Shown piece by piece: positions 20,357-39,803 of a stretch of 64,000 nt of DNA. The translations under genes and the position numbers were made by a program. Under the pieces are notes generated by a model, which was not told where the DNA came from, made no database searches, and worked only from the letters and a program-made list of their open reading frames with translations. The stretch comes from Gracilariopsis chorda. Taxonomy: Eukaryota > Rhodophyta > Florideophyceae > Gracilariales > Gracilariaceae. The stretch is from contig NBIV01000304.1 in the NCBI GenBank assembly GCA_003194525.1, positions 18,453-82,452 on the forward strand, given 5' to 3'. Positions within the stretch are counted from its first letter, which is position 1; each line of letters opens with the position of its first letter.

Positions 20357-20596
20357 TGAGAGATGTGCTTCGGATATCTTACCGAAGTTCATGACTGCGC
20401 AGTGTAGGGAAGGGCCTATCACAAGCAAACAACAATGTGGCACAGCTGCTTTTTCCCCCCTTACGGTTATCTGGAGGAACTCGTGTGCCTTTATATAGGT
20501 TAACTACGCGACCTTTGGGTTACTATGACGTACAACTTGTACTAATGCAATGTACTATTATGTACGTTATGTCCTAAGTTGTACGTCAATGTCACA
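20357..20596 (-). repeat. 3' LTR of copia element F
   Basis: In element orientation it starts TGTGACATTGACG and ends CATCTCTCA. The polypurine tract adjoins it at 20597-20605. Confidence 0.93.
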
Positions 20597-20739: not shown

Positions 20740-22742
20740 TACGCTTTGTTAATGCGTCGGCAATATTGTTCCGTCCCGGAATCCAAGATATTTATCAAGC
20801 TCACCGGATTCGAAAGCGTTTTGCAGCATTGTCACTGTTTTGCGCAGCAGAAACTCTCGGCATTCGTGTAGGGTAGTCACTGTATCGAACAGAGACTTCG
20901 AGTCTACTAGCATTCGGTGCTTGATATCGCAGTCCTGGAAGATGTTATTGAACGATTCCTTAATGTCGTATCCACGATCTTCTGCTTCCGTGCAAGCTAG
21001 GATCTCTGCTCCAAACGATTAGTACGTTACTCGGCGTTGTTTTGAGCTCGCCCAGTATAGCGGGTGGAACAAAGGCTTGTCGTGCATGTCAGTCGTAAGT
21101 CTCAGTTCACAGATGAGTCCCGTTTGTCCATATGGTTGTTGGTTAGTTCCGTGTGACGCGTCCGAAAGGCTAACAATATCCACTGCTGATATTCCCAATG
21201 GGCGCACGAACTTGATCACAGGGTGTAGATTTCGTATATCACTCAGCATGGCGTTGGCTTCGACGATGTGTTTAACTCTCAAATCTCCTAGTTGTTGCTG
21301 CATTCTAGACGTGACGAAAGATGCTTGCGGTAACACTCCTGATCCAAGGTACATCATCGTCCCGGCCAATGATCTATACTCGTGCGTCTCATATTCGGTG
21401 GTTTTGTCCTCTCTTTGTCTTCTCCTGGCCCTAGAGAGATCTATGCTGTTCAGGCGCTGTAGATAGGGCTCCATGGATAGTTATACGTCTCCTTCGTCGT
21501 TGATATTGATATCACATCCTGCGAAGTTGAGTTTGCTGTCGAGTCTGATCTTTCCTACCTCGAATTCTTCTTGTAACTTCTGCATGAAGTTTGATATATC
21601 CGACGTATGCCCCGCTACTAGAAGGTCGTCGACGAGTTTGATTACTGCAAGATATATACGACCTTCATCGCGTCGGAGGAACATTCGGTTCACTCCGTAT
21701 ACGCGTGTGAATGCCATGGTATCGAGCAGCCAAGTCTCTATACGTTTGGCCCATTGTCTGCCTGCTTCGACTATGCCGTATGGTAGCTTCGTGAGCTTCC
21801 ACAGCACGTGTCTCTTGATTCTGAACTCAGGCGCCGGTCTGACGTATATATCCCTGCAGATTGGTCCGCTCTGTAGGTAAGCGCCTTTAATGTCTGCCAC
21901 GCCAAAGGAGAATCCTAGACGTAGAGCGATGCTGATAAGGAGTCTGACGATTATCATGTCTGCATTTGCACAATCCTTCCTGATCTCGTCTTTGTGGTCA
22001 TCCTTGTTTCCGTGTGTAACGAGTCTGGCTTTGAGTTTGCGCATTTCTTCCTCATCCTGTTTCACCTTGTACACTGTATGCGACGAAATGATGTTGGCCT
22101 CGTCTGGTAATTCTGATTCGTGGACTTCCTCGTATGCACCGATCCAGTTGTCTCTGTGTTCCTTTTCTGCGGCTTTTTGGAGCAACCATGATGGTGCGAA
22201 CTGGACTTCGCGAGCGGTGACCTGTCTAGTGCCGATTACTTTTTGCATGCTCTTGAGTACTTCTTTTTCCTGGCTATTCAGGGTATTGGGTCCCTCCATC
22301 TCCGAATTCTCTAGCAGTTCTTCGGTGTATGCTCCCATGTCCTTGCGTACGCGTTCCTCCTTCTGCATGCTAGCCATGAGATATGCTGAAACCTGTGGCT
22401 CGTTCTCCTGACCGTCGCTCTGGTCGGGGCTTAACGTGAGGTCGATGTAGTCCTCCATGAGTCCTTCTGACAGCTCCCTAGTGAGTGTTGAGCTGGGTCG
22501 AAGTCGTATATCCTCGTAAGCGACTTTCGATATAGGTCCTTTCTCCTTTCGTCGCACTTCCACGTAATGAGGGTGTGCTCTCACTACGGTTGCCTCTCTC
22601 CACTCGTCGGGTACGTTGTGTGCAGATGTCTTGAAGTAGAACAGGATTTCATCTCCTGGGTTTATATGCAGTTGAGATAGAGTGGAAGGGTTGCGTGATC
22701 GCATGACCTTTTGTAACGCACGGGTCTCGCATTGTTCCATAT
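20740..22742 (-). pseudogene. Copia F pol, RT and RNase H part
   Basis: The copia sequence resumes at 22742 on the left of the nested element, within the integrase C-terminus. RT of the RVT_2 type follows: GIVEAGRQWAKRIETWL, KLVDDLLVAG (catalytic VDD), VADIKGAYLQSGP. A TAA at 21481-21483 interrupts the frame (a Gln codon one transition away would fit). RNase H continues (SLSDASHGTNQQPYGQTG, MLVDSKSLFDTVTTL), with another stop near 21017 and a frame change before the closing motif NIADALTK at about 20755. The enzyme order and length are complete for a copia pol, but it cannot be translated whole. Confidence 0.85.
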
Positions 22743-22747
22743 ATGCC

Positions 22748-23573
22748 TGTGGTGCAATGCCCCAAAGGGGAAAAACACCGAAAGACGTTCGGGATCTTCC
22801 TCTCACGAGGTGAACCCAGTTGGGTAGAGTCCTCCCAGAGGTGTCACGGCGAAGCCGGTTTGTAAGACCAGGGACACCTGTCGCGACTTGCGCAGGGAGG
22901 TGAAGGCGAAGAATCGGTATCCTCGTGAGCGGGGTGTGATCCTCAGTAGAGGTATGTTTCCACGTAAGTGGGGGTGTGTGAGCGGATGCGCACACGAGGG
23001 CTGCGGATAGCGGGAGGTGCTACCCTAAAAAGGGGAAAAAGGAAGGGCAAAGAGGAGGAAGAGAGGACGAAGTGAGTCGCGAGAGCGACGAGGACGAACG
23101 GCGATGCCGGTAACAATATCCCTATACAGGGCGAAACACCAATGCAATTGGAACAATTGTACTCCCAGTGATGGGTCCCTTTAGATGTGCAAGGGGGTTA
23201 GATGTCCCGTGGTTCACGGCGTTTCCCTCCAAGGAGGGGTAGAGCAAGCGCGCGAGCGGTAACAACTAGAGCCAATTCCCCAGGTTGGGGTCCCTTTTTG
23301 GGGAAGGTTTACTGGTGCGACGGCAGTGCGCCGTCGCACTAAGTACTAGCTTCCCAGAAATGGGTGTGCAAATAATAAATAATATTAACTAAAATACTCC
23401 ACATTTCGTGGCAACATCCACTACTGTAGCCAACCGCCAATTGACCCAGAACCGTGTCCCACGTGTCCATATCCACCATAGTGGGGCGTAGTTCATATAC
23501 ACACTACACAACCGATAATATCGGGAAAGCGTTCAAGTACCAAGAATCCCTCCCTGAGGGCGTTTGCACTTCA
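22748..23573 (-). repeat. 3' LTR of element G
   Basis: In element orientation it runs TGAAGTGCAAACGCC...GCATTGCACCACA. It contains a 25-bp inverted repeat at 23315-23339 (arms GTGCGACGGC and GCCGTCGCAC) that is also present at 34183-34207 and 38875-38899. An AT-rich segment (AATAATAAATAATATTA) lies near 23370. Confidence 0.95.
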
Positions 23574-23587
23574 TATCCCCCCCTTAA
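23574..23587 (-). promoter_or_regulatory. Polypurine tract of element G
   Basis: The minus strand reads TTAAGGGGGGGATA immediately upstream of the 3' LTR. Confidence 0.8.
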
Positions 23588-23629
23588 GACGGGAAAACGA
23601 CCGCGGACGCGGAGGATTCCCAGACGAAA

Positions 23630-25417
23630 ATGGGTGATAAAAGCGCGTGCTCTGTCTCCGGTTCTCCGGTAAAGCCCTCTGCACCAGAGTCATCAAGCAC
23701 ACAAACGACAACAACAGCCACCCTCCAAAAGGGAAAAATGAACGACGACAACAACATCAACAACCACAGCCAACCTCCGAGACTTCTCGGGCGATACACC
23801 ACCGGTTTCCGGTCAGTTCCCCTGCCTCAGGGCGATCGAAATCCGGTACAACCGGGGAATATGGCTGCTGCTGCCGACCATCCCTTCGCATTACCACCTT
23901 CGGTGGTGTCCTCCGGAACCACTCCGGTGTCCAACTGGCCAACCTACAACACCCTGGTGGGGCTCAACCCGATGAATCGGAATCACGCGTCGCGCCTGCG
24001 CCTTGCCCCGTGGTTTCACCCGGTCGCTGTCCTCAATGAGGGATTGGTCACCGCTTATGCGGATGGCTCAGACACCCTTCCCGGGGATCTGCCCAGAGCA
24101 GTCACCACGTCGTGGGATTGGCGTCACCGGATTGCGATTCCGCGTCACCACCTCCGAAGAATTTCGGGCGAGACCGTCGCTGCGGCGCAGACCGCGTTGA
24201 CGCGGATGGCGTACCAACAGAAGAGCCGGGCTCCATTCGATGTACCGGTCCCACCGGAGTTTGGCTTTGACGTTAGCTACTTCCGCACTCGCGGGGAGAT
24301 TGGGTACGGCGAGAACCTGTTCCGCCTCGAGACCCTCGCTTGGAGGAATTTCCCCGCAGCGCGGCAAGAAGCCCTTTGCTAGGAGCGACCGATTATTCGG
24401 GCGGAGTTCAGGTACCTTCCCCAGCAATACCGGTCCAACTTTCTCCAAAACTTCATCCGCTACGAGCGGCGTTGGCGATCCCGATTCGGGTATTTTATCC
24501 CGTATCACAACGTGGAGATAGAGCGGATTGCGCCGCCTCACCGACTAGGTCGGTATGTAGCACTCCCCGAGTGGTGGCGCTTCCATGAAGCCTGCCGGGG
24601 GTGCTACATAGAACTCCCGCCGGTACTTACGTACCTCGGTTCGCTGCTCATGCAGGATCCCCGGTCGGGGTTGTGGTCCGTAGTGGTTACGGAGTGGGCG
24701 GCCCGCACTGCGGCTTATATCCTCAACGAGGGTTACGACCAGTATCGTCTCTGGTTCCTTCAACCGCGTGTGCGGGCAGCGATCCGAAACCTGGATCTTC
24801 GCATCCCCCTTGGGGGCCAGGCCAACAATGAAGAGGTCCTCCAATTACTTGGGTACATCGACAGCGTTAGCTGGAGTGAGGTCCCGCTGGAGCAAAGCGG
24901 TCGTGTGGATGGCGGTAGCGGTAACACCGGTGGTCCAGGACTCAGTAGAAACATCGCCCTTGCGGGGGATTTTATCTACTTCGACCCCTGGGAGTTCCGG
25001 GAAATTTCCTCCGAGGAGGCGCGCGAGCTTCGCGATACGCCCCGGCATGTTCCGGAAGACCACCCGGTGGGGTACGTCGATTCTGACGACTACTACCGCG
25101 CATACGGCGGGGATGACCCAATGGTCGATAACGAACCGGAAGAACCCGGGGAGATGGACGTAGAGGAAACCGGCGCTAGCGCGGAAGCTTTCCCAGAGGG
25201 GGTATCTCCGGCCGAGCCGGCTGCTGACCCTTCGGCGGCAAGTGCCGGACCTTCTATCCCCAGCGGGGTGACGGCGAATGAAAACGAAATCATCGCACGT
25301 TTCCTCCGGGGTGCCGGTCTTAGCGCTGCCGAGGTATCGGGGGATGTCACCACCATGGCGGACGCGTTGGCCTACCGCCTTGCTGGGGGTTACGCCCCGG
25401 ACGATGGGGGTGAGTGA
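23630..25417 (+). pseudogene. Antisense accessory ORF of element G
   Basis: On the strand opposite to gag-pol, an ATG at 23630 (57 bp inside the 3' LTR) opens a frame of about 595 codons, broken only by a TAG at 24380-24382. It does not overlap pol, which ends at 25609. The N-terminus is Ser/Thr/Asn-rich. The middle (from about residue 80 to 430) is rich in Trp, Tyr and Arg and looks folded (YRSNFLQNFIRYERRWRSRF, LPEWWRFHEACRGCYIELPP). The last 150 residues are acidic and Pro/Ala-rich, ending with a helical segment (ENEIIARFLRGAGLSAAEV). There is no signal peptide, membrane segment or recognised domain. Antisense extra ORFs in this position are known in some plant Tat/Ogre-type gypsy elements, but I cannot show homology to them. 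Function unknown. Confidence 0.7.
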
Positions 25418-25504
25418 ACCCTCTAGTCTATTTTCCTGGTTCTTCTTTCCCTGGCTATGCCAGTTAGTGTAGTGTAGTATTGTGGGGAGCTAGCTGCTCC
25501 CTTG

Positions 25505-25510
25505 AATAAA
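25505..25510 (+). terminator. Polyadenylation signal of the antisense ORF
   Basis: AATAAA lies 88 bp after the antisense stop codon and before the end of the convergent pol frame, in the right place to end a separate antisense transcript. Confidence 0.45.
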
Positions 25511-25608
25511 CTTTCCCGTTTAGAACGGTGCTTCTCGGTTGAGTTCCCCGTCTTCGACGGACTTTGCCTTGTTATCCTTTCCTTTCGCTCTCCCCTCGCG
25601 CGGCAACG

Positions 25609-28600
25609 TTACCCAACTTGGGCATTAACCAGCGTGGCTGGGGCTGCAGTTCCCGTTTGACGGTGGTATCGCAGGACCTGCGACCGTGGGACGTGTTCAA
25701 TTGGCTCCCACGTATCCCCACTGGGGTCATACCCGTACCAGCGGACGCAGTATTGTAGAATACCATCCTGGTCCCAGGTGTGTCCGACAAGTCGGTCTAC
25801 TACGAACTCTCGTTCGTAGACCTGCCGGCCGTGCCAGGTGGTGGTTGTAATCCCTGGCGAGGGTTGCCCGCGGTGCGGTATAATGTCCCTTAGCAGGGTG
25901 TTCGGCGATAACTCCGACGTTGCCGTGCGCTGTCCTAGTGGCCGCTGCTCATGCGGGAAAATATCCCTCAAGAGGGTGTGTGGTGTCACGGTTTTCACCG
26001 GCAAGTCGTTCCCCAGAGGGGTGTCGTTTTTCCCGTCTTCACGGTAGGCCGGGCGAACCGCCAGTCGGCGGGGGACTTGGGTTCCGCCTTCGCGGTTGAG
26101 CTCACGAACCGCGAGTTTGCGGGAAGATGACCGCTCCTGCGGGATCGGCATTTCCACAATCCCCTGGGGGGGCCCGTGCGACACGGTGATTGGGTGGCAA
26201 ACCGCCTCCCTGCCAGGCGCGCGAGCGCTCTGCACCATACGTTCCGGCGATGCCGTGGTGTCCCCGGCTACTGACGGGTTGCCTGGGGCTAACTCCGGTA
26301 CACCGGTATTTTGGTCAAAATTCCCCTTTGGGGGGTGCCGGGCAGGTGCCGATGACACCCTTTTCAGGGGCTTGGCCGCTAAGTGCGCTGCACCGTCTCC
26401 ACGCGGAGGAGCAGCGTCCGGTATGACCGGTTTCGAGCGTGTGATGGGGTGCGCTTTTTCCGAGTTCCTCGGTTCTTCCCCGCAGCGTTGCGGGAGGTGG
26501 CGCAAATTATTCCCCGTAGCGGGGGCTTTGATTCCGTCAACGACGGGAGGCGTTTCCGGTGCTTGCGAGCCAGGGCATAAAGCTTCGACTGCGGCTTGGC
26601 TGCCTTTTTCCCCAAGAGGGGTGTGGGTATTTCCCTGTGAGGCCGGCGTATCTGGGCGCCCCTTCTCCGCAAGGCGCGGGTCTGATCGACCTGATTGAAC
26701 CGCTTCCGCGGGGACTTCCGCCAACGGCGGCTTCGAGGCATCGCCCTGCTCAGGGGATTGGGGGCAATCGTCACCATACTCCCTTGTCGGGCATCCTTCC
26801 CTGACAGGGGTGTGCGGTAGTTGCGCTTCAACTTCCTGTGTAGCACGGTATGTTTTCCGCGTTTGTGGCGATGCCTCCGGGGATGGATTGGGCGATTGCC
26901 TTTCCGCTGCTGCGGTATTGGAGTGAGACTTCTCGTTTTCCCGTGACAAACGGTGCATTTGCCGCTTTTGCGGGGCCTGCGCGTCTGGTTCCTGTTGCAC
27001 AGCACTGCCCGGGAACGGGGGATTAGTGTCGCGTGACATAATCCGTGCTCTACGGTCAGTGTTCCGTATGTTACGGCGTGTTTCCCGTTGCGACGGCGAT
27101 ATCGTTCCTCGAAAACGAGTGTTCTCCTCCTCCTCCTTAGACGGAGCGGCGGGATAAGGGATAACATTCCCCGCCTGGCGGGTATTGATGCGCGCCAGTG
27201 GGGCGGACGTGGTAGGGGCGGGCGCTGAGGGGCCCGAATTACCCGGCTGAGCCGGTGAGTCCGACAGAGTCGGTAGGTCTGAGAATCCCCGGCTGGGGTT
27301 TGGTAGTACCGTAGGTCTAGTACTCCCGGATGGTTCCGGTGTTCCAGAGTCCGTAGAAACGGGTTTGCCTGGATCCAGGACTACCTCTGACGAGGGAGGA
27401 GGGGCAAGGACAACACGATCACGGGAAATCCGTTCGTGCGTGTCGCCCATCTCTACCACGACAGTGTCGGTGTTAACAGAGATGACCTTGAATCGTCCAT
27501 CGGCCACAGGCGAGAGTTTATGGCGCTTCTCCCGTTCCGGGTTGTAGTACTCCTTCCTGATGAAGACGTAGTTATTCGCCCGAATCGGGGACGGTTTCCC
27601 TCGCAAGCGAGCATCAAAATCCCGCTTGTAAGCGGCTTGGGCCCGTGCCATAGACATCTGCGCAGCGGGGACCAGCTTGGAAAGCCATTGCTTCCATTGC
27701 TGCCGGTAGATACCCACAGATGGGAAATTGTCCAAGGTAGCTTGGGGTTCCAGCGCCACAGACGGGGGTGTTCTAGATAGAACCAACTCGAATGGCGAAA
27801 CTCTGGTAGTCCGGTGTACCTGCGTATTGTACGCGTAGGTTACCGCATCAGCGTAGAGATCCCAATTCGTTGGGTGGTCAGCGACGTAGGGACGTAACGC
27901 CGTGAGTAACGTCCGGTTAAACCGTTCAACTTGCCCATTACACTGGGGGTCGTAGGTAGTCGTGAACAAGTTCTTGACATCCAGGATGCGACAAACATCC
28001 TGGAAGAACTTGCTCACGAACTGCTTCCCGTTGTCGGAGAGCACCTCCACAGGGGGACCGTAGACAAAAATCCAGTGCTTCACCAGAGCCTGGGCCACCG
28101 TGAGAGCGGTTATCCTCCGAAGAGGGACAGTCCGTACCAGCTTAGAAAAGCGGTCGGTGATGACAAGTAGAAACTTGTTTCCAGGTTTTGTGGTGAGTAG
28201 TGGTCCGAGAAGATCAATTGCGATAAACTCGAGTGGCGCCCTTGCGGGGAATAGTTTCATCTTCTTCGCATTTTTGCGGAGTTTGACGCGATTCTTCGCG
28301 CATTCGCTACAAAACCGCACGGTTGCGTAGCAATCCACCGCCATTGCGGGCCAATAGAAATCCCTTCGCAGGGTTAGGTAGAGTTTCCTCCCACCTTGGT
28401 GACCTCCAATGGGGGCGCAGTGTGATAGATGTAACACCCGCGATTGCAGGGAATGTGGTACCACAATCTGTGGGCGGGCTTCGACCTTTCTTACGAGGTA
28501 GCCTTTGTCGTTTACCCCGAAAGGGAGATCTTCACCACCGTTGATACGGGCACGAATCCTCGTACAGAACGGGTCGCCGAACTGTTCTCGGATCATTTCT

Positions 28601-31370
28601 TCCGGTGATACCGGTACAAAGTTTCCCGGTAACGGGTTCTCAGATTTATCTCGCGATGCGAGTAGTTCGTCAAAATCAGCATCCTCGTTCCAGTTTTCTG
28701 GCCTAGCCTCGACGGCATATTCCGCATCATCCGGGTCTATAGCCATGAAACATGGGACTTCATCATCCTCCGTTGGGAGTGCTTCCCCACTTGTGGGTAA
28801 CCGCGACAAAGCGTCGGCCTGGGTGTTCTGCGCACCCTTTTTATAAATGACTTGAAAGTCATATTCCGCGAGGCGGAGTCTCCAGCGCATGAGGCGTCCC
28901 GACGGGTCGGAGATATTCATCAACCACCTCAATGAGGAATGATCCGTGTACACGGTGAAATGAATTCCCATAAGGTAGGAGCGCAGAGTGGTCATCGCCC
29001 ATACGACGGCGAGGCACTCTTTCTCCGATACGGAGTAGTTCCGCTCATGAAAATTGAGCGAGCGCGACCAATAACCAATTGGATGTCGTTCCCCCTCGGG
29101 GGTGGTTTGAAAAAGAGCACACCCGACTTGGTAGTCGCCCGAGTCCGTATCTACGGAGTATGGCAACCCAAGTTTTGGGAGATGTAGGATTGGTGCTGAT
29201 GTGACAGCTTCCTTTAAGGAGTTGAAGGCTTCCGATTGCTCAGGCGTAAACGTTCCCAGTTTTGGGGGGTTCCCCTTTCGCAACAACGCGTTTAGGGGCG
29301 CTGCAGTATCCGAAAAGTTCGGGATAAACCGTCGATAGACGTTGACCAGCCCCAAAAAGGAGCGCAGTTCCGTTTGAGTACGGGGTTCTTTCGCCTCAAC
29401 GAGGGATTTGACTCGAGCTTTCTCGATCGCTAACCGTCCAGGACGGATAATGTGACCCAGATACTTCACAGTATCTGTGAAAAACTCGCATTTCCTCAAC
29501 TTGAGAGTAATTCCCGCATCGCGGAGTACGGTCAGCACGTCTCGGACGTGAGTGAGATGGTCGTCCAACGAGTTGGAGAAGATGATAATATCATCAAGGT
29601 AGACCAGACAACTCCGCCACTTGAAGCGGTTGAGTAGAATATCTACTGCACGCTGAAAGGTGGCAGGGGCGTTGGTTAACCCAAATGGCATCCGCTTGAA
29701 GCGGTACGTCCCTGCATGGCAGGTGAATGCGGTTTTGTCGCGATCCTCCTGTCTGACAGGTACTTGCCAATATCCCCAATTGGCATCAAGGGCCGTGAAC
29801 ACGGCGGCGTCTCCAAGGGAGTCAATGCACTCGTCCATACGAGGGATGGGGTACGTGTCCCTAACAGTCACGGCATTGAGCCGGCGTTAGTCGACACAGA
29901 ACCTCCAGGTTCCGTCGGCCTTTAAAGCCAGTACAACTGGGGATGCCCAGGGTGATTGAGCGGGCTCAATCACACCTGCGCGGAGCATCTTGTCCACTTG
30001 GGACTGCTCCTCTTCCCGAGCTTTCGGACCTGCCCTGTAAGGGGGTTGTGCAACCGGTCACGCACCGGGGATTAAATCGATCCGGTGTTCCGTTGCATTA
30101 ATCTCGCCAAGCGAGCCATCCCACATTGTGGTGAATTCCCGTAACATAGTACGGAGTTTGTCGCGGTGCGACTCTGGCACGTGGCTGAAGTCCAGCGCTT
30201 CAAGTGCTTTTTCCGGATCAATCCGGTCGTTGCTTGATGGAACATTGTCCTGTGGAACAGGTGTGGTTCGCAATTCCGAGTTACTCGGTATGTTCGACGC
30301 TGAAGTAGCGGTTTCCTCCCCCTCCTTAGACTTGACGTCTTCGGACGGCGGGGCGAACTCCTCAGAAGAGGTGGTAACTCCGAGTACATCGGCGGCTGTC
30401 ATCGTTGTTGGCAGCATTCCCATAGGATGGGGGGTTACACTCCCAATTACTTGGTGTTTTACCAGATACTGGGGGTGTTTGCCAAGGTTGGCAACCAATA
30501 TCCGGAAAGGAACATCCGGGGAAATGGAGACAATTCCATTAGCCAGCGCCAGCTGGGATTTCTCGTACAACGAGGCAAGGGGTTGTATAACCCGAAGACC
30601 GTGTTGACGGGAATTTACCTGCACCCAGACTTGGGACTCAGCCGGTATAGAAACCGAGGCAGCGACGCGGAGCTTGGTGGACTCGCGGGACGCGGGCGGT
30701 GGTTCCTGCGCAGCAGGGAGCGGAACGTGTTTCCGAGAGCACCGCTTTAGCGGGCGGCGAACAATCGGAACCGACGATCCGTCGTCAAGTTCTACACGCC
30801 TGAGGCGGGGCCTGATTGCGTCGACAAATCTGTCGCAGTAATCACATCCCAGTATCACTGGTGCTGCCAATGAACGGCAAACGATGAAGTCCAACTTCAC
30901 CACAGAGGTACCAAGTCTCACGACGAGGTCCACTGTGCCCACCGTTTGTAACGGATTGTTGTTCGCATCCGAAATGTCGGGGACCGCGTCAGAGCGGATA
31001 CGCCACCGCACAAGCTGGGGTAACAATGATTCCACAACAAAGTTGGGGCCTGCACCTGTATCCAGGACGGTGAGAAACCTCACCATAAACTGGGGGTCAA
31101 GGCCAAGGTCGGCATGGACCTTATAATTGCGCTTGGCCAAGACCAAGACTCTACCGGGAATCCGGGGATTTTTACTCTGTATCCACGGGCGACACAACAC
31201 ACCGAGGTGCGCAGAGGCCGCGTCAGCGGTGTCTTTCCTCGAGAGGACTTTCACCGGGGAGCGAGGCGAGGACGCCTCAGGCGCCAACAGCCTCGTTGTT
31301 GAGGACGCCTCTCCCAAAGGGGAGACTCCTTCAGTTAGTTTTCCGACTTCGGCGGTGGGTTGGTTTCCTC
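25609..31370 (-). pseudogene. Element G Pol: protease, RT, RNase H, integrase, chromodomain
   Basis: Pol overlaps the end of gag in the -1 frame. Protease has LDTGAGPNFV. A TGA at 30058-30060 (after IDLIPGA) and a TAA at 29887-29889 (after RFCVD) interrupt an otherwise single frame. Counting from 29871, RT has YLDD at residues 91-94 and RNase H ends near TQADALSRLP. Integrase has an HHCC finger (near 480) and catalytic Asp (IAIDLLGPL), Asp (LSDNGKQF) and Glu (NGQVERFNRTL). About 525 residues of Pro/Ser/Arg-rich linker follow. The C-terminus is a chromodomain (YEREFVVDRLVGHTW then YCVRWYGYDPSGDTWEPIEHV). The linker is far longer than usual in chromoviruses. Confidence 0.88.
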
Positions 31371-33509
31371 GACAACGAGTGCTTCATCCCGTTGACGGGG
31401 GTTTCTATCCGCATAAGCGGGGGTTGCAACGGATGGTTGCGTGATCTCCCGAATCGGGGTGTATGAAGCTTGCCGCGCACGCGGGGTCTGTGGTAGGGCG
31501 TGAGAAAAGTCCGTTTTAGCACGGAGGTAGGAAGCCGTCGGGACGGATCGTTTCTCCTCTGGAGTGAGGGCCTCATAATTTGCCACCACCTTGGCCATAT
31601 CCTTCAGTGAACAACTACACTGAGGAGAGGTATGGCCATGGGCATAGCACAGGTGGCAAATGAGAGCCAGCACCGCGACACGCGGAGTATTATTCCGAGT
31701 ATCGGAGAAGCGAACCCTAGGGCGGGTGTCAGTCCATCCAGGCCGTTGATAACGGGATTGACCGTTTGAAAACGGGAGTCGTTGGGGTTGAACCCGACTG
31801 TTACCACCGTACAAAACGGGGTCTTCCGTTCCCGTATCACGGGTCATCTCCGTCGTTGACGGCAAATCACTGGTGGTTATCGACACACCATCCCCCTGCA
31901 CTAAATGCACGGTATCAAATCCCTGTCCAGGGTTCCCATCCGCGGTGAGCGGGAGAGAGGAAGCTTCGCTTTCCAGCAACAACGCCTTGGCGGATTTAGA
32001 CCGATTGTTCGGAGTTCTTGCACGAAGTGCATCCCCTTCCGCTCGGGCGTGTTGGACCAGCTCGAGGTAGGTGATCTTCCGCTTGTCCTCCCGATAACGG
32101 GTAACTAAACTCCGGATTGCCGGGTCAAGACCATCGATGAACATGGTACTGCGCTCCCCAGCGGGGTATACGTTACCACATCTGTGGAAAGCCTTGTTGA
32201 GGCGCACCGAGTAATCGGTCTCGGTCTCTCCAGCACGCTGGCGTGTATCTCGCAAAGCGAGGATAGCCTGCTGAATAGCGGTGTTGGTGGCGTAGGAGCG
32301 CAGAAGATACTGCACAGCCACCGGCCAGCAAGTAACTCCTCCCTCGGAGGCGCGAGAAGATCCTCTGACAGAGGTGTATTGGTCCTCCGCCACTCCCCGT
32401 AAGAAATACGGTAAAGCCAAATAGGCTTGTCCCTCATTCATACCGAGGATATTGGCCTCCGCTACAAAGCAGGATAGGAAATCCAGTACTAAGACTGGGT
32501 CCTCTCCAGTACAATACTGGTTGCGGAGCGAGAGCTGCATTCGCTTAATGCATTCTAGCACCTTTCCCGTACCACGGGGCGTACGTCCAGGTGACGAGTC
32601 TTCGAGCCGGTAGTACCGGTATGATAAAAGCTTCCGGTAATCCGGGTTTGTCGGTTTCAATTCCCGGAGACTGGGGTGTCTTCTCCCCTTCTGGCGGGTT
32701 CGGACCACACCTTCAGTGGCCGATGACCGCTTCGAGCGGGAGGAGTAGCCTCGCTTCTCGTCCTCCGAGTCGGAGTCCGAGGAGCTCGAGCTAACCGAAT
32801 GGTTTCGGGATGATTCCGACGATCTCGAACAATCGGAGTCCGAATATTTTCGGTGGTGTTTCCGTCGATGACGGCGTTTCTTCTTCCCAGCAAGCTGGTC
32901 GTTGTGCGATGCCCCGTTTACCGGATCATCCGGGGATGGTTTGTCCATGAGGACGAACTGCTCCAGCGTCTCCAGGCGGGCACCAATCCGATCAAGTCGG
33001 GCTTCAACTCCTTCGATGAAGGTGGCGGGTTGGCCCAAACTCTCCAACACGGAGTTGACGTCAGACCGTAAAATACGGAGTTCCTCGGCGACCTCCTTTA
33101 CGGGGGTTGCCGAGACCACCTCTTGGAGGGATTTTAGTTCCCCTAAAAGGGTGTCATGGGCGGTCCACAGAGCGCGGACCTGGGATTCCAGGGAAGTCCC
33201 CTGGGGGATGTTATCGCCGGTTCCACGGGGACTTGAAGCCGCGACAGCCGGAGCAGGCCGGGGTGCCTGGGGCACTGCGGCAACAGCCGGAGTCGATGCT
33301 GCATTCCCCTGCGGGGGTGATAACGAGGGCAAAAGGAGGTTCCGGGGTTCACGGTCGGGGGTATCATTCCGCGATGAAGCGGCGCCAGCACGGCTGGAAC
33401 TTGTCCGTATAGGGATACGGGGTACGAACCGAACTTCGGAAGTGTCCGCGTTGTCGCGGGAGCGACTATGCGTAACCACTGGCTCCGCGTCGGAGGGATT
33501 TCTCGACAT
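31335..33509 (-). CDS. Element G Gag
   Basis: A 724-residue Gag starting at ATG 33507-33509. Order of parts: a disordered Pro/Ser N-terminus; a predicted coiled coil (about residues 110-190, VKEVAEELRILRSDVNSVLES); a very basic and Ser-rich block (about 205-290, KKKRRHRRKHHRKYSDSDCS); a capsid-like region (about 320-520, ECIKRMQLSLRNQYC to FIDGLDPAIRSLV); and a canonical CX2CX4HX4C knuckle (CHLCYAHGHTSPQC, near 620). It is longer than typical gypsy Gag. Pol begins in the -1 frame near its end, which suggests a programmed shift, though no standard slippery heptamer was found. Confidence 0.88.
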   Translation of the reverse strand: MSRNPSDAEPVVTHSRSRDNADTSEVRFVPRIPIRTSSSRAGAASSRNDTPDREPRNLLLPSLSPPQGNAASTPAVAAVPQAPRPAPAVAASSPRGTGDNIPQGTSLESQVRALWTAHDTLLGELKSLQEVVSATPVKEVAEELRILRSDVNSVLESLGQPATFIEGVEARLDRIGARLETLEQFVLMDKPSPDDPVNGASHNDQLAGKKKRRHRRKHHRKYSDSDCSRSSESSRNHSVSSSSSDSDSEDEKRGYSSRSKRSSATEGVVRTRQKGRRHPSLRELKPTNPDYRKLLSYRYYRLEDSSPGRTPRGTGKVLECIKRMQLSLRNQYCTGEDPVLVLDFLSCFVAEANILGMNEGQAYLALPYFLRGVAEDQYTSVRGSSRASEGGVTCWPVAVQYLLRSYATNTAIQQAILALRDTRQRAGETETDYSVRLNKAFHRCGNVYPAGERSTMFIDGLDPAIRSLVTRYREDKRKITYLELVQHARAEGDALRARTPNNRSKSAKALLLESEASSLPLTADGNPGQGFDTVHLVQGDGVSITTSDLPSTTEMTRDTGTEDPVLYGGNSRVQPQRLPFSNGQSRYQRPGWTDTRPRVRFSDTRNNTPRVAVLALICHLCYAHGHTSPQCSCSLKDMAKVVANYEALTPEEKRSVPTASYLRAKTDFSHALPQTPRARQASYTPIREITQPSVATPAYADRNPRQRDEALVVEETNPPPKSEN
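31448..31862. repeat. Sample of the micro-hairpin lattice in element G
   Basis: Small inverted repeats occur at 31448-31459, 31473-31484, 31511-31524, 31535-31546, 31673-31685, 31695-31705, 31743-31755, 31762-31775, 31807-31819, 31831-31843 and 31850-31862. Examples are CCGCGCACGCGG, CCGTTGATAACGG and CCCGTATCACGGG. Arms are 3 to 5 bp and GC-rich, with loops of 3 to 6. The same pattern is seen across the LTRs, pol linker and antisense ORF, but not in the flanking copia DNA. Confidence 0.7.
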
Positions 33510-33597
33510 GAGAAAATACCGTTACGACGGGAAACGATCACGGAACTTCCGGTGAATAAAAACAAACCTCGTAAGAGGGAAAACCAAAAACCGATTC

Positions 33598-33612
33598 TAG
33601 GTCGGGAGACCA
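33598..33612 (-). promoter_or_regulatory. Primer-binding site of element G
   Basis: Three bases after the 5' LTR the minus strand reads TGGTCTCCCGACCTA. It begins with the TGG complementary to a tRNA 3' CCA. The cognate tRNA was not identified. Confidence 0.65.
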
Positions 33613-33615
33613 CTT

Positions 33616-34442
33616 TGTGGTGCAATGCCCCAAAGGGGAAAAACACCGAAAGACGTTCGGGATCTTCCTCTCACGAGGTGAACCCAGTTGGGTAGAGCCC
33701 TTCCAGAGGTGTCACGGCGAAGCCGGTTTGTAAGACCAGGGACACCTGTCGCGACTCGCGCAGGGAGGTGAAGGCGAAGAATCGGTATCCGCGTGAGCGG
33801 GGTGTGATCCTCAGTAGAGGTATGTTTCCACGTAAGTGGGGGTGTGTGAGCGGATGCGCACACGAGGGCCGCGGATAGCGGGAGGTGCTACCCTAAAAAG
33901 GGGGAAAAGGAAGGGCCAAGAGGAGGAAGAGAGGACGTTGTGAGTCGCGAGAGCGACGAACAGATACGGCGATGCCGGTAACAATATCCCTATACAGGGC
34001 GAAACACCAATATGATTGGAACAATTGTACTCCTAAGGATGGGCTTCTTTAGATGTGCAAGGGGGTTAGATGTCCCGTGGTTTACGGCGTTTCCCTCCAA
34101 GGAGGAGTAGAGTACGCGCGCAAGCGGCAACAACTAGAGCCAATTCCACAGGTTGGGGTCCCTTTTTGGGGAAGGTTTACTGGTGCGACGGCAGTGCGCC
34201 GTCGCACTAAGTACTAGCTTCCAAGAAATGGGTGTGAAAATAATAAATAATATTAACTAAAATACTCCACATTTCGTGGCAACATCCACTACTGTATCCA
34301 ACCGCCAATTGACCCCAATACCATGTCCCACGTGTCCATATCCACCATAGTGGGGCGTAGTTCATATACACACTACACAACCGATAATATCGGGAAAGCG
34401 TTCAAGTACCAAGAATCCCTCCCTGAGGGCGTTTGCACTTCA
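33616..34442 (-). repeat. 5' LTR of element G
   Basis: 827 bp, with roughly 25 to 30 differences from the 3' LTR by eye (about 96 to 97% identity). Carries the same terminal sequences and the 25-bp palindrome at 34183-34207. Confidence 0.95.
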
Positions 34443-35640
34443 ATGCCTGCATGAGTTCTTCTGATACCATTCTCCGTGGTGCACCCAGTATTGAAGGGGC
34501 GTATCCTTTGGCTAGTTCGAACGAGCTAAGCACTTTAGAACCGGTAAACAGGTTTGAAAGGAAAGCCGCGCGTGAAAATATGGTCTTGTCTGTGTCAGTA
34601 GAGTCTTCTTTCTGGATCTTTTCCATTATGCGTTTAACGACGCCGTTCTTACGCTCGATGATGCCTGTTTTGTTATGTCGTCTAACGGGTCGTACTTTCA
34701 GCTCAATGTTCCTCCCGTTCAAGAATCTTCGAATCTCTTTGGAAGTCATTTCGTCGTCTGCTGACAATGCTTCTGGTGCCCCTTGTCGATTGATCCATTC
34801 GGTCTCTATCAATCTAACGGTCGTGTTGGATTTTCGGTCACTTACTATTCCCGCTTCGGAGTACCCGGTGACGCAGTCAACCATATGTAAACAAGTATAT
34901 TGCGTTCCTCGGATATCTACAAACGTGAAATCGATTTGTATTTCTACGTTGAATGCCTGGTTCACGTGGTTGATCGATATCTTTCGCATTGGCTTTGGGG
35001 GTCCTGATTTGGCGCAGATGAGGCAGTTGTCGGATATCGCTCTTATTTCCTCTTCGACTGATTTCGAGATGTGTCCGGACCTCCTACATAATTGTATCAG
35101 CTCTTCTGGTGTCGCGTGTGTCAGTCGATGCAACCTTTTCGCGAGTGTGGTCGGCCTTATGTGTTGGGAGTTTGCTGACAGGAGTGACTTCATCATATAG
35201 GTTATCCGCATGTGTGCCCTCGAGTTGTATCGAGAAGAGGTGAGGTACACTTCGACAGTTCTCGGCTTCGAGTCTTCTGGACGCCTTATCGTCATCGTGG
35301 CTGGTTTCGAAGTCATGTCCGTTACACTATACCTCCTGATATCCAGTCCAATCGTCAACGGGGTTTCGTCGTCAAATAAGTCGAATGTGAGTTCTATTGG
35401 TTGGTTATGAATGTCCTGGAACGAAACGGACCATGAGCACAGAACTGGTTTGGGCTTGATGCACTCGTTCCCCCATCCTCTATGGTAGCGGGACCTTGGT
35501 CTATCTGGTTGGAATTGTATGTCCATAGCGGTACACAGTCTCAAGGCGGCTCTTATGCTTCTCGAAGATATAGGGCTCCCTTCGTCGAGTATGGGATTCG
35601 GATCCTCTTCCGAATCCCTTATTGAAAAAAAGGTTTCGAG
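34443..35640 (-). pseudogene. Copia F pol, protease-integrase part
   Basis: The copia pol upstream of the nested insertion. A poorly conserved protease-like stretch (FDLFDDETPLTIGLDIRRYS) is followed by an integrase finger (HRLTHATPEELIQLC to CLICAK). The core has catalytic Asp (VEIQIDFTFVD), Asp (ALSADDEMTSKE) and Glu (GIIERKNGVVKR). The frame reads EELMQA and then runs into the LTR of element G. Two frame changes separate it from gag: one at the T7 run at 35622-35628 and one near 35545. At least one of them is probably a mutation. Confidence 0.82.
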
Positions 35641-36776
35641 CTTTTCTGACGATGCTTCTCGCTAGGCCGTGGTTTGTAGCCTTCGCGCTTGTCATCGCGT
35701 CCACGTTTGGTGATCTGATTCAATTCAGTACCATTTTCGACTGCTTTGGCCTCTACCATTTTCCGCTCAGCATCTTCGGTCGACGATTGCTTACCGTTTC
35801 CTGATTCGTCAGTATCCCGGTTGCGCTTCCTGTTCTTCTTGAACATGCGGTTGGTATTCATGAAAGACCTGGATTGACTGTCGTTCGGCTCATTAGGCTT
35901 GGACTCGTCTTCTAAATCCTTTCCTTCGAGTCCCGCTTCTTCTAGTGCCAGGATGGCTTCCTGCAGACCTATCCAGGATTTCGCATCCCCGGATTGGTGG
36001 GATTTGGTTTTCTGGTCTAGAGCTGCTCTGAGCGCAAGGATGGACGTCTTCGATTCTTCTTGAAGATCGGTAGACGAAGAATCCGATTCTAAGACTTTGA
36101 GTATCGTAGCGATTCTGTTCGTAGATATTGGGATTATGGAATCCGTCTCAGAAGTCCTATTCTTGGAACTTGCAACGAGATTGCTGATGATATTGCTGAA
36201 GGTCTGTGAGGTAAGCCGAGCATTTAGGAGCAGAACAATTGCGAAGTTCTGACTGTCCGCGGATTCCTGTTCTGCATTTGTCAGATTAAGGTATGACAAT
36301 GCAGCGCCGGCAAAGCGATTAACGAAGTCGGAGATTGATTCTCCCTCTGATCGAACACAGGAATTGATTTCCTTATACAGACGCACGATGCGGCGTAAAC
36401 GGTCAACAGTAGAATCTTTGGCGACAAGATCGACTATCTTTTTCACCACTTCAATCTGCGTTAGGTGTTGATCTTCTGATTGTGGCGTCAATATGATTTC
36501 GCCGGTGCGGACGGCGTTTTTGACCATTTCTTTTCTTCCAAACTCTAGAGAGCGGTACAGAGTCATACCGAGGGTGGCTGCTCCACCTTTAGCTCTAGAA
36601 TCACCACCTTTGGCTGCAGCGCATAGATTGTCGGCCCATTCGAAGACGACTTCTCTCCAAAGGAGTTTATCTGTCTCAGGGCGGATTTTCGGGGGTAGTA
36701 ATATGTTGCTTGGGGAGAGCTCCTCCCCTGGGCCCATAACTGAGAGATGTGCTTCGGATATCTTACCGAAGTTCAT
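35619..36776 (-). CDS. Copia F Gag
   Basis: The frame is open from inside the LTR. The first ATG downstream of the LTR TATA box is at 36774-36776, giving a start MNFGKISEAHLSVMGPG. The second Met (36735-36737) lies in the primer-binding site. The protein has a helical capsid-like body (LWREVVFEWADNLCAAAK, VRLYKEINSCVRSEGESI, DFVNRFAGAALSYLN) and a Lys/Arg-rich C-terminus instead of a zinc knuckle. It ends SSKPFFQ at TAA 35619-35621, directly after a run of seven T. If translation starts at the primer-site ATG it is 372 residues; from the LTR ATG, 385. Confidence 0.75.
   Translation of the reverse strand: MNFGKISEAHLSVMGPGEELSPSNILLPPKIRPETDKLLWREVVFEWADNLCAAAKGGDSRAKGGAATLGMTLYRSLEFGRKEMVKNAVRTGEIILTPQSEDQHLTQIEVVKKIVDLVAKDSTVDRLRRIVRLYKEINSCVRSEGESISDFVNRFAGAALSYLNLTNAEQESADSQNFAIVLLLNARLTSQTFSNIISNLVASSKNRTSETDSIIPISTNRIATILKVLESDSSSTDLQEESKTSILALRAALDQKTKSHQSGDAKSWIGLQEAILALEEAGLEGKDLEDESKPNEPNDSQSRSFMNTNRMFKKNRKRNRDTDESGNGKQSSTEDAERKMVEAKAVENGTELNQITKRGRDDKREGYKPRPSEKHRQKSSKPFFQ
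36729..36740 (-). promoter_or_regulatory. Copia F primer-binding site (initiator tRNA-Met anticodon arm)
   Basis: The plus strand reads TGGGCCCATAAC, identical to the anticodon arm of plant/animal initiator tRNA-Met. The element strand (GTTATGGGCCCA) can pair with a half-tRNA cleaved in the anticodon loop, as in Drosophila copia. It directly adjoins the LTR end. Confidence 0.85.
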
Positions 36777-36980
36777 GACTGCGCAGTGTAGGGAAGGGTC
36801 TATCACAAGCAAACAACAATGTGGCACAGCTGCCTTGTCTCCCCTTACGGTTATCTGGGGGAACTGGTGTGCCTTTATATAGGTTAACTACGCGACCTTT
36901 GGGTTACTATGACGTACAAATTATACTAATGCAATGTACTATTATGTACGTTATGTCCTAAGTTGTACGTCAATGTCACA
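36741..36980 (-). repeat. 5' LTR of copia element F
   Basis: 240 bp. The minus strand contains TATATAAAG at 36873-36881, a good TATA box, which puts the transcript start near 36845 and leaves about 100 bases of R-U5. Confidence 0.93.
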
Positions 36981-36985
36981 ACTGT

Positions 36986-37830
36986 ATGTGTCTGTATGTG
37001 CAATGATACACAATCACAGACAATGGAGCTACACAAACTTCAACGGCTCTAGTCACTCTACGCGCCTCGGATCCCTACGAGCGCTATTGCGAGCTACAGC
37101 TCGCAGTAGCGCAAGTTGAGCTCCATAAGCTACACAATAAGCAAAGCTACTAAACTCACGCGGCGCCCAGCACCGCCTTCGGCCTAAAGCCGCACCCAGT
37201 TGTCTAAACTACCTAGGAATATCTTTGATAACGAGCTATTTGACACCTTATAATACATGAATAAACGCACATTTGTTTTCTTCCAAACGACTTGCTAATG
37301 GTAATAAGACGATTTGCCTTACTGCCGTGAATCGGTTGAGCACGTGTAAAATCCGTTATTCTGGTCATTTTCAGCTTCTATCAGCGCCGTCGAATCCGTC
37401 TCTAACGTGAACATCTTTAAGGACCAACTAAAAGGCCAAACTTTGATGCGTCCAATTACGCCATACTATTTCTATTCTGTGTACACGATTTCGCTCTTTG
37501 GGCCAACGGAGGAAAACATTTCTTCTAAACAACCAACTTAAAGTGCCATGGTGCACAAAATGTGCTCCATTGCAGCATGTTTTGTGCACAATATTCTCAG
37601 TAAAAAGCCCAAGCGCAGTAGAATAGAATTCTTTGAGTCGTGGAAACGGCATAAGTAAAGGTAGCAAACGTCTGTTTGGGACATATCGGACATAGGGTTA
37701 GATAAGAGTTGAAAGGAAGAAGCATGTAGAGTGAAATAGGTTGTAGGTGGCTGCTTGGAGAAACGGTTTCTGCAACTTTAGAGCAGATATCAGCTTAAAT
37801 ATAGTATCTTTAGCACATTTGGCAATACGT
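36986..37830. other. Intergenic, nothing recognised
   Basis: The right flank of copia F. 37060-37130 has clustered short inverted repeats (GAGCGCTATTGCGAGCTACAG and CTGCGAGC-like arms) but no gene. Confidence 0.35.
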
Positions 37831-37897
37831 AAAATATAAACGTATACTATTCAGGCAACCAAAACAACTTACGTACAGTACCAACTACGTGTACCCT

Positions 37898-38160
37898 TCT
37901 AACAAAAATATTTGTAATCTATGTAGCGCATACGTCGGCTACGCAGTACTGCAAATGTATACACTAATAAAAAATAGTTGCAATCTATGTAATGCCTACG
38001 AAGGCTGCACAGTACTGAAAACGTATACCTTTCTAAAACAATTGTTTCACTTTATGTACTGCATTCGTAGGCCAAACAGTACTGAAATCATAGAACCCTC
38101 TAGCAAGAATAGGAAATAACTATACGCCGTATACGTAGGTGAGATCGTACTATATATATG
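37898..38160 (+). repeat. Degenerate 66-67 bp tandem repeat, about 4 units
   Basis: Units begin near 37911, 37977 and 38044 with variants of GTTGCAATCTATGTAATGC, each followed by TACGnnGGC and CAGTACTG then an A/T-rich tract with GTATAC. A fourth, weaker unit follows. It is AT-rich and shows no lasting coding capacity. Confidence 0.65.
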
Positions 38161-38401
38161 TTAACGTTGGAAACCTATACTGCATAAGATTGCAATGCAT
38201 ACGTATTTAGTGAAGTACTACTTATGTGCACTATCGAACTACTGTTGGTGTCAGAATCATCGTGAGAATATGAGAACAGAATGTAAACGTATATATCACG
38301 CATACAACTATTTTACAACACCAGCTCTCTACTTCAGCGGCAGAGACGATACATTTTCCATGGAAAGGTGATCACCCAATCTCTTAATCTCTCTCCGGTT
38401 C

Positions 38402-38640: not shown

Positions 38641-38641
38641 A

Positions 38642-39466
38642 TGAAGTGCAACGCCCTCAGGGAGAGATTCCTGGTACTTGATCGTTTTCCCGATATTATC
38701 GGTTGTGTAGTGTGTATATGAAATACGCCCCACAATGGTGGGTATGGACACGTGGGACACGGTTTTGGGTCAATTGGCGGTTAGACACAGTAGTGGATGT
38801 TGCCACGAAATGTGGAGTATTTTAGTTAATATTATTTATTATTTTCACACCCATTTCTGGGAAGCTAGTACTTAGTGCGACGGCGCACTGCCGTCGCACC
38901 AGTAAACCTTCCCCAACAAGGGACCCCAACCTGGGGAATTGGCTCTAGTTGTTACCGCTTGCGCGCGTGCTCTACTCCTCCTTGGAGGGAAACGCCGTGA
39001 ACCACGGGACATCTAACCCCCTTGCACATCTAAAGAGACCCATCACTGGGAGTATAATTGTTCCAATTGCATTGGTGTTTCGCCCTGTATAGGGATATTG
39101 TTACCGGCATCGCCGTTCGTCCCCGTCGCTCTCGCGACTCACCTCGCCCTCTCTTCCTCCTCTTCGCCCTTCCTTTTTCCCCTTTTTAGGGTAGCACCTC
39201 CCGCTATCCGCGGCCCTCGTGTGCGCATCCGCTCACACACCCTCACTTACGTGGAAACATACCTCTACTGAGGATCACACCCCGCTCACGAGGATACCGA
39301 TTCTTCGCCTTCACCTCCCTGCGCAAGTCGCGACAGGTGTCCCTGGTCTTACAAACCGGCTTCGCCGTGACACCTCTGGGAGGGCTCTACCCAACTGGGT
39401 TCACCTCGTGAGAGGAAGATCCCGAACGTCTTTAGGTGTTTTTCCCCTTTGGGGCATTGCACCACA
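38642..39466 (+). repeat. Solo LTR of the element G family
   Basis: 825 bp, homologous to both LTRs of element G but in the opposite orientation (TGAAGTGC...GCACCACA on the plus strand). Flanked by the target duplication AGGAA at 38637-38641 and 39467-39471. It is the usual product of LTR-LTR recombination after a separate insertion. Confidence 0.93.
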
Positions 39467-39576
39467 AGGAACGAGAAGAAGGTTATGTGGCTCGCTGAGA
39501 GGCCTCTTTAAGGCATTCACTATGGCGCAAAATATGTCTGGAATGCAATGGCAAAGAATGCTTTTCAAGCCTTCAT

Positions 39577-39803
39577 TGAAACAACGTATGCGAACCGCCT
39601 ACTGAGAATGTAGAAGAGTTATTCTCTGACTGGTTGCTACTCTTCTTTTACAGTGGTTTCTTCTTCTCTTGGTTCTTTTATACTGCTCATCATGCTTAAT
39701 CTATCTGATGCTCGAGACCAATTAGAACCCTCATCCGTCACGAACTCTCAATTGTTCGTTAACGCTTTTCCAAGTACGACCTTTCATAACGATACTCGTT
39801 GCA
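39577..39803 (-). repeat. 3' LTR of element E
   Basis: Ends in element orientation TGCAACGAG...CGTTGTTTCA. Matches 44264-44490. Confidence 0.85.

What the first reader, a model, noticed from the sequence alone, without database searches (positions are those of the whole stretch)
22748..34442. Element-wide lattice of micro-hairpins in a gypsy retrotransposon
The nested 11.7-kb element carries small GC-arm inverted repeats (arms 3-6 bp, loops 3-7), often spaced 20-40 bp. Examples: 31743-31755, 31762-31775, 31807-31819, 31831-31843 and 31850-31862 in gag; 25942-25956 and 25975-25986 in the pol linker; 23894-23906 and 23913-23927 in the antisense ORF; and many in the LTRs. They ignore strand, frame and coding status, and the copia DNA on both sides lacks them. 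This looks like a property of the element itself: RNA structure for packaging or protection, a mutational process that builds quasi-palindromes by template switching, or a way of making double-stranded RNA. The description is direct; the explanations are inference.
Basis: partly seen in the sequence, partly recalled or inferred. Interest (0 to 1): 0.85.

Follow-up and report, generated by a model that had tools for sequence, protein, structure and literature searches.

The report
Retrotransposon studded with uniform tiny hairpins
A family of jumping elements carries, along its whole length and on top of its protein code, hundreds of tiny hairpins of one fixed shape that selection appears to keep intact, which points to a structural code not known to me, perhaps docking sites for a protein that coats the element.

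Summary
The 11.7-kb chromodomain Ty3/Gypsy element (22748-34442) has 534 short hairpins against 210 in dinucleotide shuffles (z 22); codon-preserving shuffles are exceeded 2.0-2.6x. The excess has one main geometry: 5'-CC, 2-3 more Watson-Crick pairs, loop of 3-5 nt, GG-3'. The CC-footed 5-bp + 3-nt form occurs 55 times against 1.4 expected, its GG...CC version 0 times. Overlapping forms counted, there are 294 motifs in the element and 24 in the 51.5 kb outside it and a solo LTR. A sixth pair is avoided (4 of 120, about 30 expected). Three related families have the motif; copia, other retroelement and host-gene controls do not. Among 28 copies, singletons hit arms and linkers alike, but variants shared by 4 or more copies avoid arms (5 against 33.8). 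I read this as purifying selection on a fixed-geometry stem-loop array, most likely docking sites for an element-encoded nucleic-acid-binding protein such as Gag. The reader protein and its step are unproven; strand tests conflict.

The parts
22748..34442 (-). Whole Ty3/Gypsy element (family A); transcript reads on the minus strand; hairpin array covers all of it
   Evidence: LTR pair, ORFs, Pfam; 294 CC motifs with overlapping forms counted, 216 non-overlapping, 22.7% of bases
22748..23573 (-). LTR at the 3' end of the transcript; 17 non-overlapping CC hairpins
33616..34442 (-). LTR at the 5' end of the transcript; 15 non-overlapping CC hairpins; 36 of 826 aligned bases differ from the other LTR
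22743..22747 (.). Target-site duplication ATGCC, left copy
   Evidence: flanks printed
34443..34447 (.). Target-site duplication ATGCC, right copy
   Evidence: flanks printed
31335..33521 (-). gag open frame (728 aa, stop to stop) with an SR-like basic/acidic stretch and a CCHC zinc-knuckle-like motif (both by eye); 103 hairpins against 39.2 in codon-preserving shuffles
30058..31383 (-). open frame following gag (441 aa), protease region by position only; 59 hairpins against 23.4
25609..29886 (-). pol open frame: RT, RNase H, integrase, chromodomain; 172 hairpins against 73.5
23588..24382 (+). antisense ORF 1 (264 aa), no Pfam match; 29 hairpins against 12.4
24383..25417 (+). antisense ORF 2 (344 aa), no Pfam match, conserved in families D (59%) and C (42%); 41 hairpins against 20.2
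31743..31755 (.). example hairpin, 5 bp + 3-nt loop, CC...GG (the form most enriched over chance)
31850..31862 (.). example hairpin, 5 bp + 3-nt loop
31762..31775 (.). example hairpin, 5 bp + 4-nt loop
23894..23906 (.). example hairpin, 5 bp + 3-nt loop, in antisense ORF 1
38650..39467 (+). solo LTR of the same family in the opposite orientation; carries the array too (22 CC motifs)

Best explanation
Shown: the element and three related families carry an element-wide array of stem-loops of fixed geometry (5'-CC, 2-3 more Watson-Crick pairs, loop 3-5, GG-3', usually followed by an unpaired junction), with free inner and loop sequence; in family A shared variants avoid the arms, while sites mostly turn over between families. 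Read as: purifying selection on the array. Inferred: the array is a set of binding sites for a structure-specific nucleic-acid-binding protein that reads the CC/GG foot, stem length and junction. The most likely reader is the element's own Gag (nucleocapsid part), which would coat and condense the element's RNA, and perhaps its cDNA, along its whole length during particle assembly, in the way of dispersed packaging signals. Strand and reader are not established.
For: Excess over dinucleotide and codon-preserving shuffles in every part of the element. Nearly all-or-none pairing in family A: with CC...GG at total length 13, all three inner pairs 55 against 1.4, partial pairings 1.2-2.3x; GG...CC 0. 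Stem capped: next outer pair Watson-Crick in 4/120 (5+3), 17/199 (4+4), 2/35 (5+4) and 7/184 (4+5), where about 25% is expected; control stems with loops 9-19 give 42/175. Selection: shared variants (4 or more of 28 copies) in arms 5, slid-mask mean 33.8, minimum 15 in 4487 slides; singletons not depleted (202, mean 179.6); holds outside ORFs (p 8.6e-9) and at codon position 3 (0 variants on 388 arm sites, 29 on 819 others). Three further families have it, controls do not. Even density across LTRs, coding and antisense regions suits coating of a whole molecule.
Against: No binding data. Strand unresolved: inner single mismatches favour A.C (2.1x) over G.U (1.3x) in the transcript, the opposite of what a sense-RNA structure predicts; junction counts against element composition favour the sense strand (G.U 0.45, A.C 1.15), and permuted flanks show both mildly depleted. 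Avoidance of the next pair is absent for 4+3 stems (30/125). Small stems barely lower folding energy in families C and D; in family C the array is weaker (CC motif 5.1x) and GG...CC forms reach 1.9-2.2x. Cross-family compensation is weak. The selection test was made on one 4.5-kb piece of one family; it shows no deficit at codon position 1, far-loop control stems show a weak deficit, and family B gave too few variants to repeat it. A lower replication-phase mutation rate in paired bases could mimic selection.
Confidence: 0.5

Rival explanations
1. The hairpins work in single-stranded cDNA of the strand complementary to the mRNA (first-strand cDNA): they keep it compact, displace leftover RNA fragments or shield it from deaminases and nucleases.
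For: Inner mismatches that are G.T on that strand are over-represented: A.C 99 against 47.0, G.U 54 against 40.7; the direction is the same in all four families. All five arm variants shared by 4 or more copies are of the A.C type.
Against: Arm variants shared by 2-3 copies are even (A.C 7, G.U 7, other 6). Junction counts against composition point to the sense strand. Linker variants shared by 4 or more copies show no G>A excess (G>A 12, C>T 19), so no deaminase mark. Shielding does not explain CC orientation or the stem-length cap.
Confidence: 0.2
2. Generic RNA structure (genome-scale ordered RNA structure): any stable local fold is favoured, for persistence or to escape silencing.
For: Folding energy of family A is lower than shuffles (mean z -1.13 sense, -1.00 antisense; flanks -0.1 to -0.2) and of B somewhat (about -0.7).
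Against: C and D pieces are at -0.2 to -0.5 although hairpins are 2.1-2.6x enriched there. Longer stems are avoided for most forms, GG...CC stems are not enriched in A, no G.U excess.
Confidence: 0.1
3. A mutational process, such as template switching by the reverse transcriptase, keeps writing quasi-palindromes.
For: Pairing is nearly all-or-none and mainly Watson-Crick, as a copied arm would be.
Against: Stem capped at 4-5 bp; fixed orientation; differences between families spread over both arms independently (covariance 0.03, RT-IN only); shared variants avoid arms.
Confidence: 0.06
4. Paired bases simply mutate less during the RNA or cDNA phase, so hairpins accumulate passively without function.
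For: The deficit of shared variants in arms (odds ratio 0.09) is of the same order as the enrichment of the motifs (8-39x in A).
Against: Does not predict CC orientation, avoidance of a sixth pair, or stronger enrichment of 5 bp + 3 nt than of longer stems. Shared linker variants have an even transition spectrum, not a damage mark.
Confidence: 0.1
5. Chance or base/codon composition.
For: The element is GC-richer (0.565) than its surroundings.
Against: Dinucleotide shuffles (0 of 200 reach it), codon shuffles (0 of 100 in each of five ORFs), a GC-rich host-gene locus (L062, GC 0.58) at 1.26x, GG...CC at 0.9x in the element.
Confidence: 0.01

Closest known systems
Dispersed packaging signals of ssRNA viruses (MS2, enteroviruses; PMC6281560, PMC4751978, PMC7793301, seen only as search listing with the start of the abstract)
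   Same: Many short stem-loop sites spread through the genome, proposed to contact the coat protein
   Different: Here the element is an LTR retrotransposon; hundreds of sites including LTRs and antisense ORFs; one strict foot (CC/GG) and stem length; no binding shown; sense-strand wobble not favoured inside stems
Genome-scale ordered RNA structure of persistent RNA viruses (recalled)
   Same: Whole-genome excess of local pairing
   Different: Here stems are mostly capped at 4-5 bp and oriented, and folding energy is near background in two of four families
Ty3/Gypsy elements with chromodomain; oomycete Chronos group (PMC5348765, abstract and section 5 read)
   Same: LTRs, RT-RNase H-integrase-chromodomain order
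   Different: No PF00075 RNase H found in pol here; the parts read mention no hairpin array; host of the window not identified
Mobile hairpin elements such as GC clusters and double-hairpin elements of organelle genomes (recalled)
   Same: Dense small GC-rich hairpins
   Different: Those are copies of one sequence; here inner arm and loop bases vary from site to site

Membership tests
Ty3/Gypsy LTR retrotransposon with chromodomain | Two LTRs with target-site duplication | tested here: met
   LTRs 22748-23573 and 33616-34442, ATGCC on both sides
Ty3/Gypsy LTR retrotransposon with chromodomain | RT, RNase H, then integrase, then chromodomain | tested here: met
   Pfam RVT_1, RT_RNaseH, Integrase_H2C2, rve, Chromo in that order
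Ty3/Gypsy LTR retrotransposon with chromodomain | primer-binding site complementary to a tRNA | not tested
   region after the 5' LTR printed, not compared with tRNAs
Chronos (oomycete, dual RNase H) | additional plant-type RNase H next to the native one | tested here: not met
   no PF00075 match in the 1425-aa pol frame at E 0.01; a diverged one could be missed
Dispersed packaging-signal array | recurrent stem-loop motif spread over the genome above chance | tested here: met
Dispersed packaging-signal array | motif conserved by selection beyond the protein code | tested here: met
   (one 4.5-kb piece, 28 copies, family A)
Dispersed packaging-signal array | binding by the capsid/nucleocapsid protein and effect on assembly | not testable with these tools
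   needs a bench assay
Dispersed packaging-signal array | structure in the packaged (sense) RNA strand, with G.U tolerated | tested here: inconclusive
   conflict
Genome-scale ordered RNA structure | folding energy clearly below shuffled sequence over the whole genome | tested here: inconclusive
   mean z about -1.1 in A, -0.7 in B, -0.2 to -0.5 in C and D (100-nt pieces; one 4-kb piece each for B, C, D)
Quasi-palindromes by template switching | one arm rewritten to match the other, stems of open-ended length | tested here: not met
Known Rfam RNA family | match above gathering score | tested here: not met
   0 matches in 22000-40000, both strands

The most novel reading that the evidence does not exclude
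A second, purely structural code is written over the entire element: several hundred stem-loops of one exact geometry, free in sequence, read by a dedicated protein on a single-stranded form (RNA, cDNA or both) and kept by selection at each site, with sites gained and lost between families while the array persists. The listings of my nine literature searches showed no retroelement or virus with such a code.
Probability: 0.4. Interest if true: 0.93.

Novelty: new variant of a known kind. Interest (0 to 1): 0.85.

Why it matters
It would be a whole-genome structural code in a retrotransposon, strong enough to be seen by eye in one copy and to leave a selection footprint at silent and LTR sites. 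It makes a long-standing question, how retroelement Gag recognises and packs its own nucleic acid beyond a short leader signal, directly testable with short synthetic hairpins. It also gives a simple marker (CC...GG hairpins, 25 per kb against 0.5 per kb in this window with overlapping forms counted) for finding such elements, their solo LTRs and remnants in other genomes.

Tried and rejected
Chance and composition: rejected by dinucleotide shuffles, codon-preserving shuffles, reversed orientation, copia and chaperonin-gene loci and four loci with a Retrotrans_gag domain. The copia control is narrower than its 12 loci suggest: L043-L052 are near copies of one family, so it holds about three families. 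That the Retrotrans_gag loci belong to another gypsy clade is inferred from the domain, which the window's gag lacks in Pfam; 4 of 150 listed places were fetched.

G.U wobble as a mark of RNA structure: no excess. Later strand tests point both ways, so I assign no strand.

Cross-family compensation in RT-IN: weak. Hairpins kept 15.3% against 5.3-12.1% in far-loop controls; double changes restoring a pair 0.47 against 0.37-0.44. Hairpin centres coincide between families more than in slid controls, but shared sequence may explain that. The shared-variant test on far-loop chance stems was not fully flat (7 variants in pseudo-arms, 96 elsewhere; odds ratio 0.44, p 0.045). Family B copies held only two shared variants, one in an arm, so the selection test could not be repeated there.

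Family B as counted includes about 1.2 kb at the start of L063, part of which matches the window's antisense ORF 1 at 85% and may belong to a neighbouring family A copy; it was cut off. L033 and L064 alone still give CC motifs 18.5x and 11.1x.

Relatives in viral contigs: 19 pattern hits, none confirmed. AlphaFold of antisense ORF 2: mean pLDDT 38, not used. Rfam: none. The first polymorphism run mixed orientations and was discarded; replace it. One search stopped on a division error in its last part; one search replaces that part.
Full report
What is there. The window holds an 11.7-kb Ty3/Gypsy element at 22748-34442, read on the minus strand. Its LTRs are 22748-23573 and 33616-34442 (36 of 826 aligned bases differ). 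The five bases ATGCC flank it on both sides. It has a gag frame, a second frame and a pol frame with RT, RNase H, integrase and chromodomain, and two antisense frames near the 3' LTR without Pfam match. A search with 1.5 kb of its gag region scored 40 of 1069 first-look candidates in the 91.3-Mb genome; all 40 match at 97-100%. The host is not identified.

The count. Inverted repeats with arms of 4 or more and loops 3-7: 534 in the element against 210.1 (sd 14.5) in 200 dinucleotide shuffles made in 500-base blocks; none reaches it. The left 22.7 kb has 364 against 385.7, the right 29.6 kb 655 against 534.9; beyond the solo LTR the right side still has 1.21x. Codon-preserving shuffles (100 each) never reach the counts in gag (103 against 39.2), the second frame (59 against 23.4), pol (172 against 73.5) and both antisense frames (29 against 12.4; 41 against 20.2). 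Exact 4-bp stems are enriched 3.6, 3.7, 3.2 and 2.2 times at loops 3, 4, 5 and 6, 1.4-1.6 times at loops 1, 2, 7 and 8, and about 0.6-1.1 beyond; a loop of 0 gives 0.9.

The geometry. Stems of 3 bp as a whole are not enriched; 5 bp + 3 nt is, 8.4x in family A. The outermost two bases are CC 15.7x over chance in A and 10x in B, C and D pooled; GG is 1.1-1.3x. In A, with CC and GG at a total length of 13, all three inner pairs are Watson-Crick 55 times against 1.4 expected, while partial pairings stay at 1.2-2.3x; in the GG...CC orientation the fully paired form occurs 0 times, in A and in the other families. Pooled over families, CC stems of 5+3 number 120 against 4.5, of 4+4 198 against 18.5, of 6+3 only 4 against 1.1; CC-footed 3-bp stems are mildly enriched (1.3-1.7x at loops 5-9). 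The next pair outwards is avoided: Watson-Crick in 4 of 120 (5+3), 17 of 199 (4+4), 2 of 35 (5+4) and 7 of 184 (4+5), with about 25% expected and 42 of 175 in control stems with loops 9-19; 4+3 stems do not avoid it (30 of 125). Counting stems of 4-5 bp and loops 3-5 (a 5+3 hairpin is then also counted as 4+5), the element holds 294 motifs, the solo LTR at 38650-39467 holds 22, and the remaining 51.5 kb hold 24. Non-overlapping there are 216 in the element, at 15.7-21.3 per kb in its eight parts.

Who has it. I fetched 10 of the 150 listed RT matches; the other 140 were not looked at. The ten fall into three further families (B, C, D), 66-72% identical to the window's element over RT-IN. All three have it: CC motifs 13.2x, 5.1x and 9.1x over shuffles, against 14.1x in A (the B figure includes about 1.2 kb that may belong to a neighbour, see Tried and rejected). 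In C the GG...CC form is also about 2x (1.9-2.2 in three pieces), so the array is weaker there. Twelve copia loci (about three families) give 668 hairpins against 700; ten loci around chaperonin genes 679 against 619. Four loci with a Retrotrans_gag domain (0.82-1.12x; CC motifs 5 in all against 5.5) and a gypsy remnant in the window (1.10x; CC motifs 3 against 3.6) show neither. So, as far as sampled, the array marks one group of elements.

Selection. Of 30 copies of a 4.5-kb piece (LTR to the second frame) I dropped L002 and L019 (0.83 and 0.91 identity to L001). In the other 28, singletons, which mostly arose after insertion, fall evenly: 201 on 1408 arm sites, 65 on 574 loop sites, 308 on 2498 linker sites. 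Variants shared by 4 or more copies, which passed through replicating elements, fall 5, 20 and 83 (odds ratio 0.09, p 2.6e-12). The deficit holds outside reading frames (2 against 61, p 8.6e-9) and at third codon positions (0 on 388 arm sites, 29 on 819 others, p 1.1e-4); first positions show none (3 against 9) and second positions are too few (0 against 4). With other reference copies the contrast is smaller but the same way (arms 0.008 and 0.009 per site, linkers 0.031 and 0.030). Sliding the arm mask along the sequence gives 33.8 shared variants on average and never fewer than 15 in 4487 positions; singletons in arms are not depleted (202 against 179.6). Arms of hairpins without the CC foot are equally spared (1 on 546 sites). 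A far-loop control showed a weak deficit (odds ratio 0.44, p 0.045). Differences between the element's own two LTRs, mostly post-insertion, hit arms freely (14 of 278 arm columns, 22 of 548 others).

What it is not. Between families, differences at lost hairpins are spread over both arms independently (covariance 0.03, RT-IN), and most stem forms have a ceiling, so template switching fits poorly. Folding energy of 100-nt pieces is only mildly below shuffles in A (z about -1.1) and near background in C and D, much the same on both strands, so the target is not stability as such. Individual hairpins mostly turn over between families (15% kept, controls 5-12%) and compensation is weak: what persists is the array.

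Strand. Inner single mismatches of the A.C kind (G.T on the complementary strand) are in excess 2.1x, G.U 1.3x, others 1.3x, and all five arm variants shared by 4 or more copies are A.C, though those shared by 2-3 are even (7 and 7); that points, weakly, to first-strand cDNA. At the junction, G.U is under-represented and A.C is not against element composition, which points to the sense strand; with permuted flanks both are mildly depleted. I leave the strand open.

Interpretation. A fixed foot, stem length and open junction with free inner sequence is what a protein reading shape plus two base pairs would demand; a selection footprint over many sites, even density and restriction to one group fit a protein of the element. 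Gag, with a CCHC-like knuckle and an SR-like basic stretch (seen by eye), is the natural candidate; the antisense-ORF protein, conserved in two other families, is a second. This step is inference. It would work like dispersed packaging signals of RNA viruses (PMC6281560, PMC4751978, PMC7793301, seen as listings); membership cannot be tested here. Nine literature searches listed no report of such an array in a retroelement by title or start of abstract; most subscription papers are not in that library.

Noticed in passing
23588-25417, plus strand: Two adjoining antisense ORFs (264 and 344 aa) opposite the 3' internal region; the second is conserved in families D (59%) and C (42%) and has no Pfam match. 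A stop codon separates them in this copy.
   Followed up: partly
20357-20596 and 36741-36980: 97% direct repeats 16,384 bases apart on both sides of the element, which look like the ends of an older element that the gypsy element inserted into.
   Followed up: no
38650-39467: Solo LTR of the same family, opposite orientation, carrying the same hairpin array.
   Followed up: yes
40045-44068, minus strand: Remnant of another gypsy-like element (SH3_Tf2-1 match in the 40048-40896 frame; Retrotrans_gag match at 43793-44068 by conversion) without the hairpin array.
   Followed up: partly
50303-51370, plus strand: Open frame of 356 aa with a protein kinase domain (PF00069).
   Followed up: no
59133-60632, minus strand: Open frame of 500 aa with a copia-type reverse transcriptase (RVT_2).
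   Followed up: no
39468-64000: A mild hairpin excess (1.21x) with few CC motifs (12 against 7.8) remains in the right flank; unexplained.
   Followed up: no
window element and families B-D: Preferred junction bases differ by family (for example A after GG in A, G before CC in B's 5+3 hairpins), as if the surroundings of the motif drift while the motif stays.
   Followed up: no
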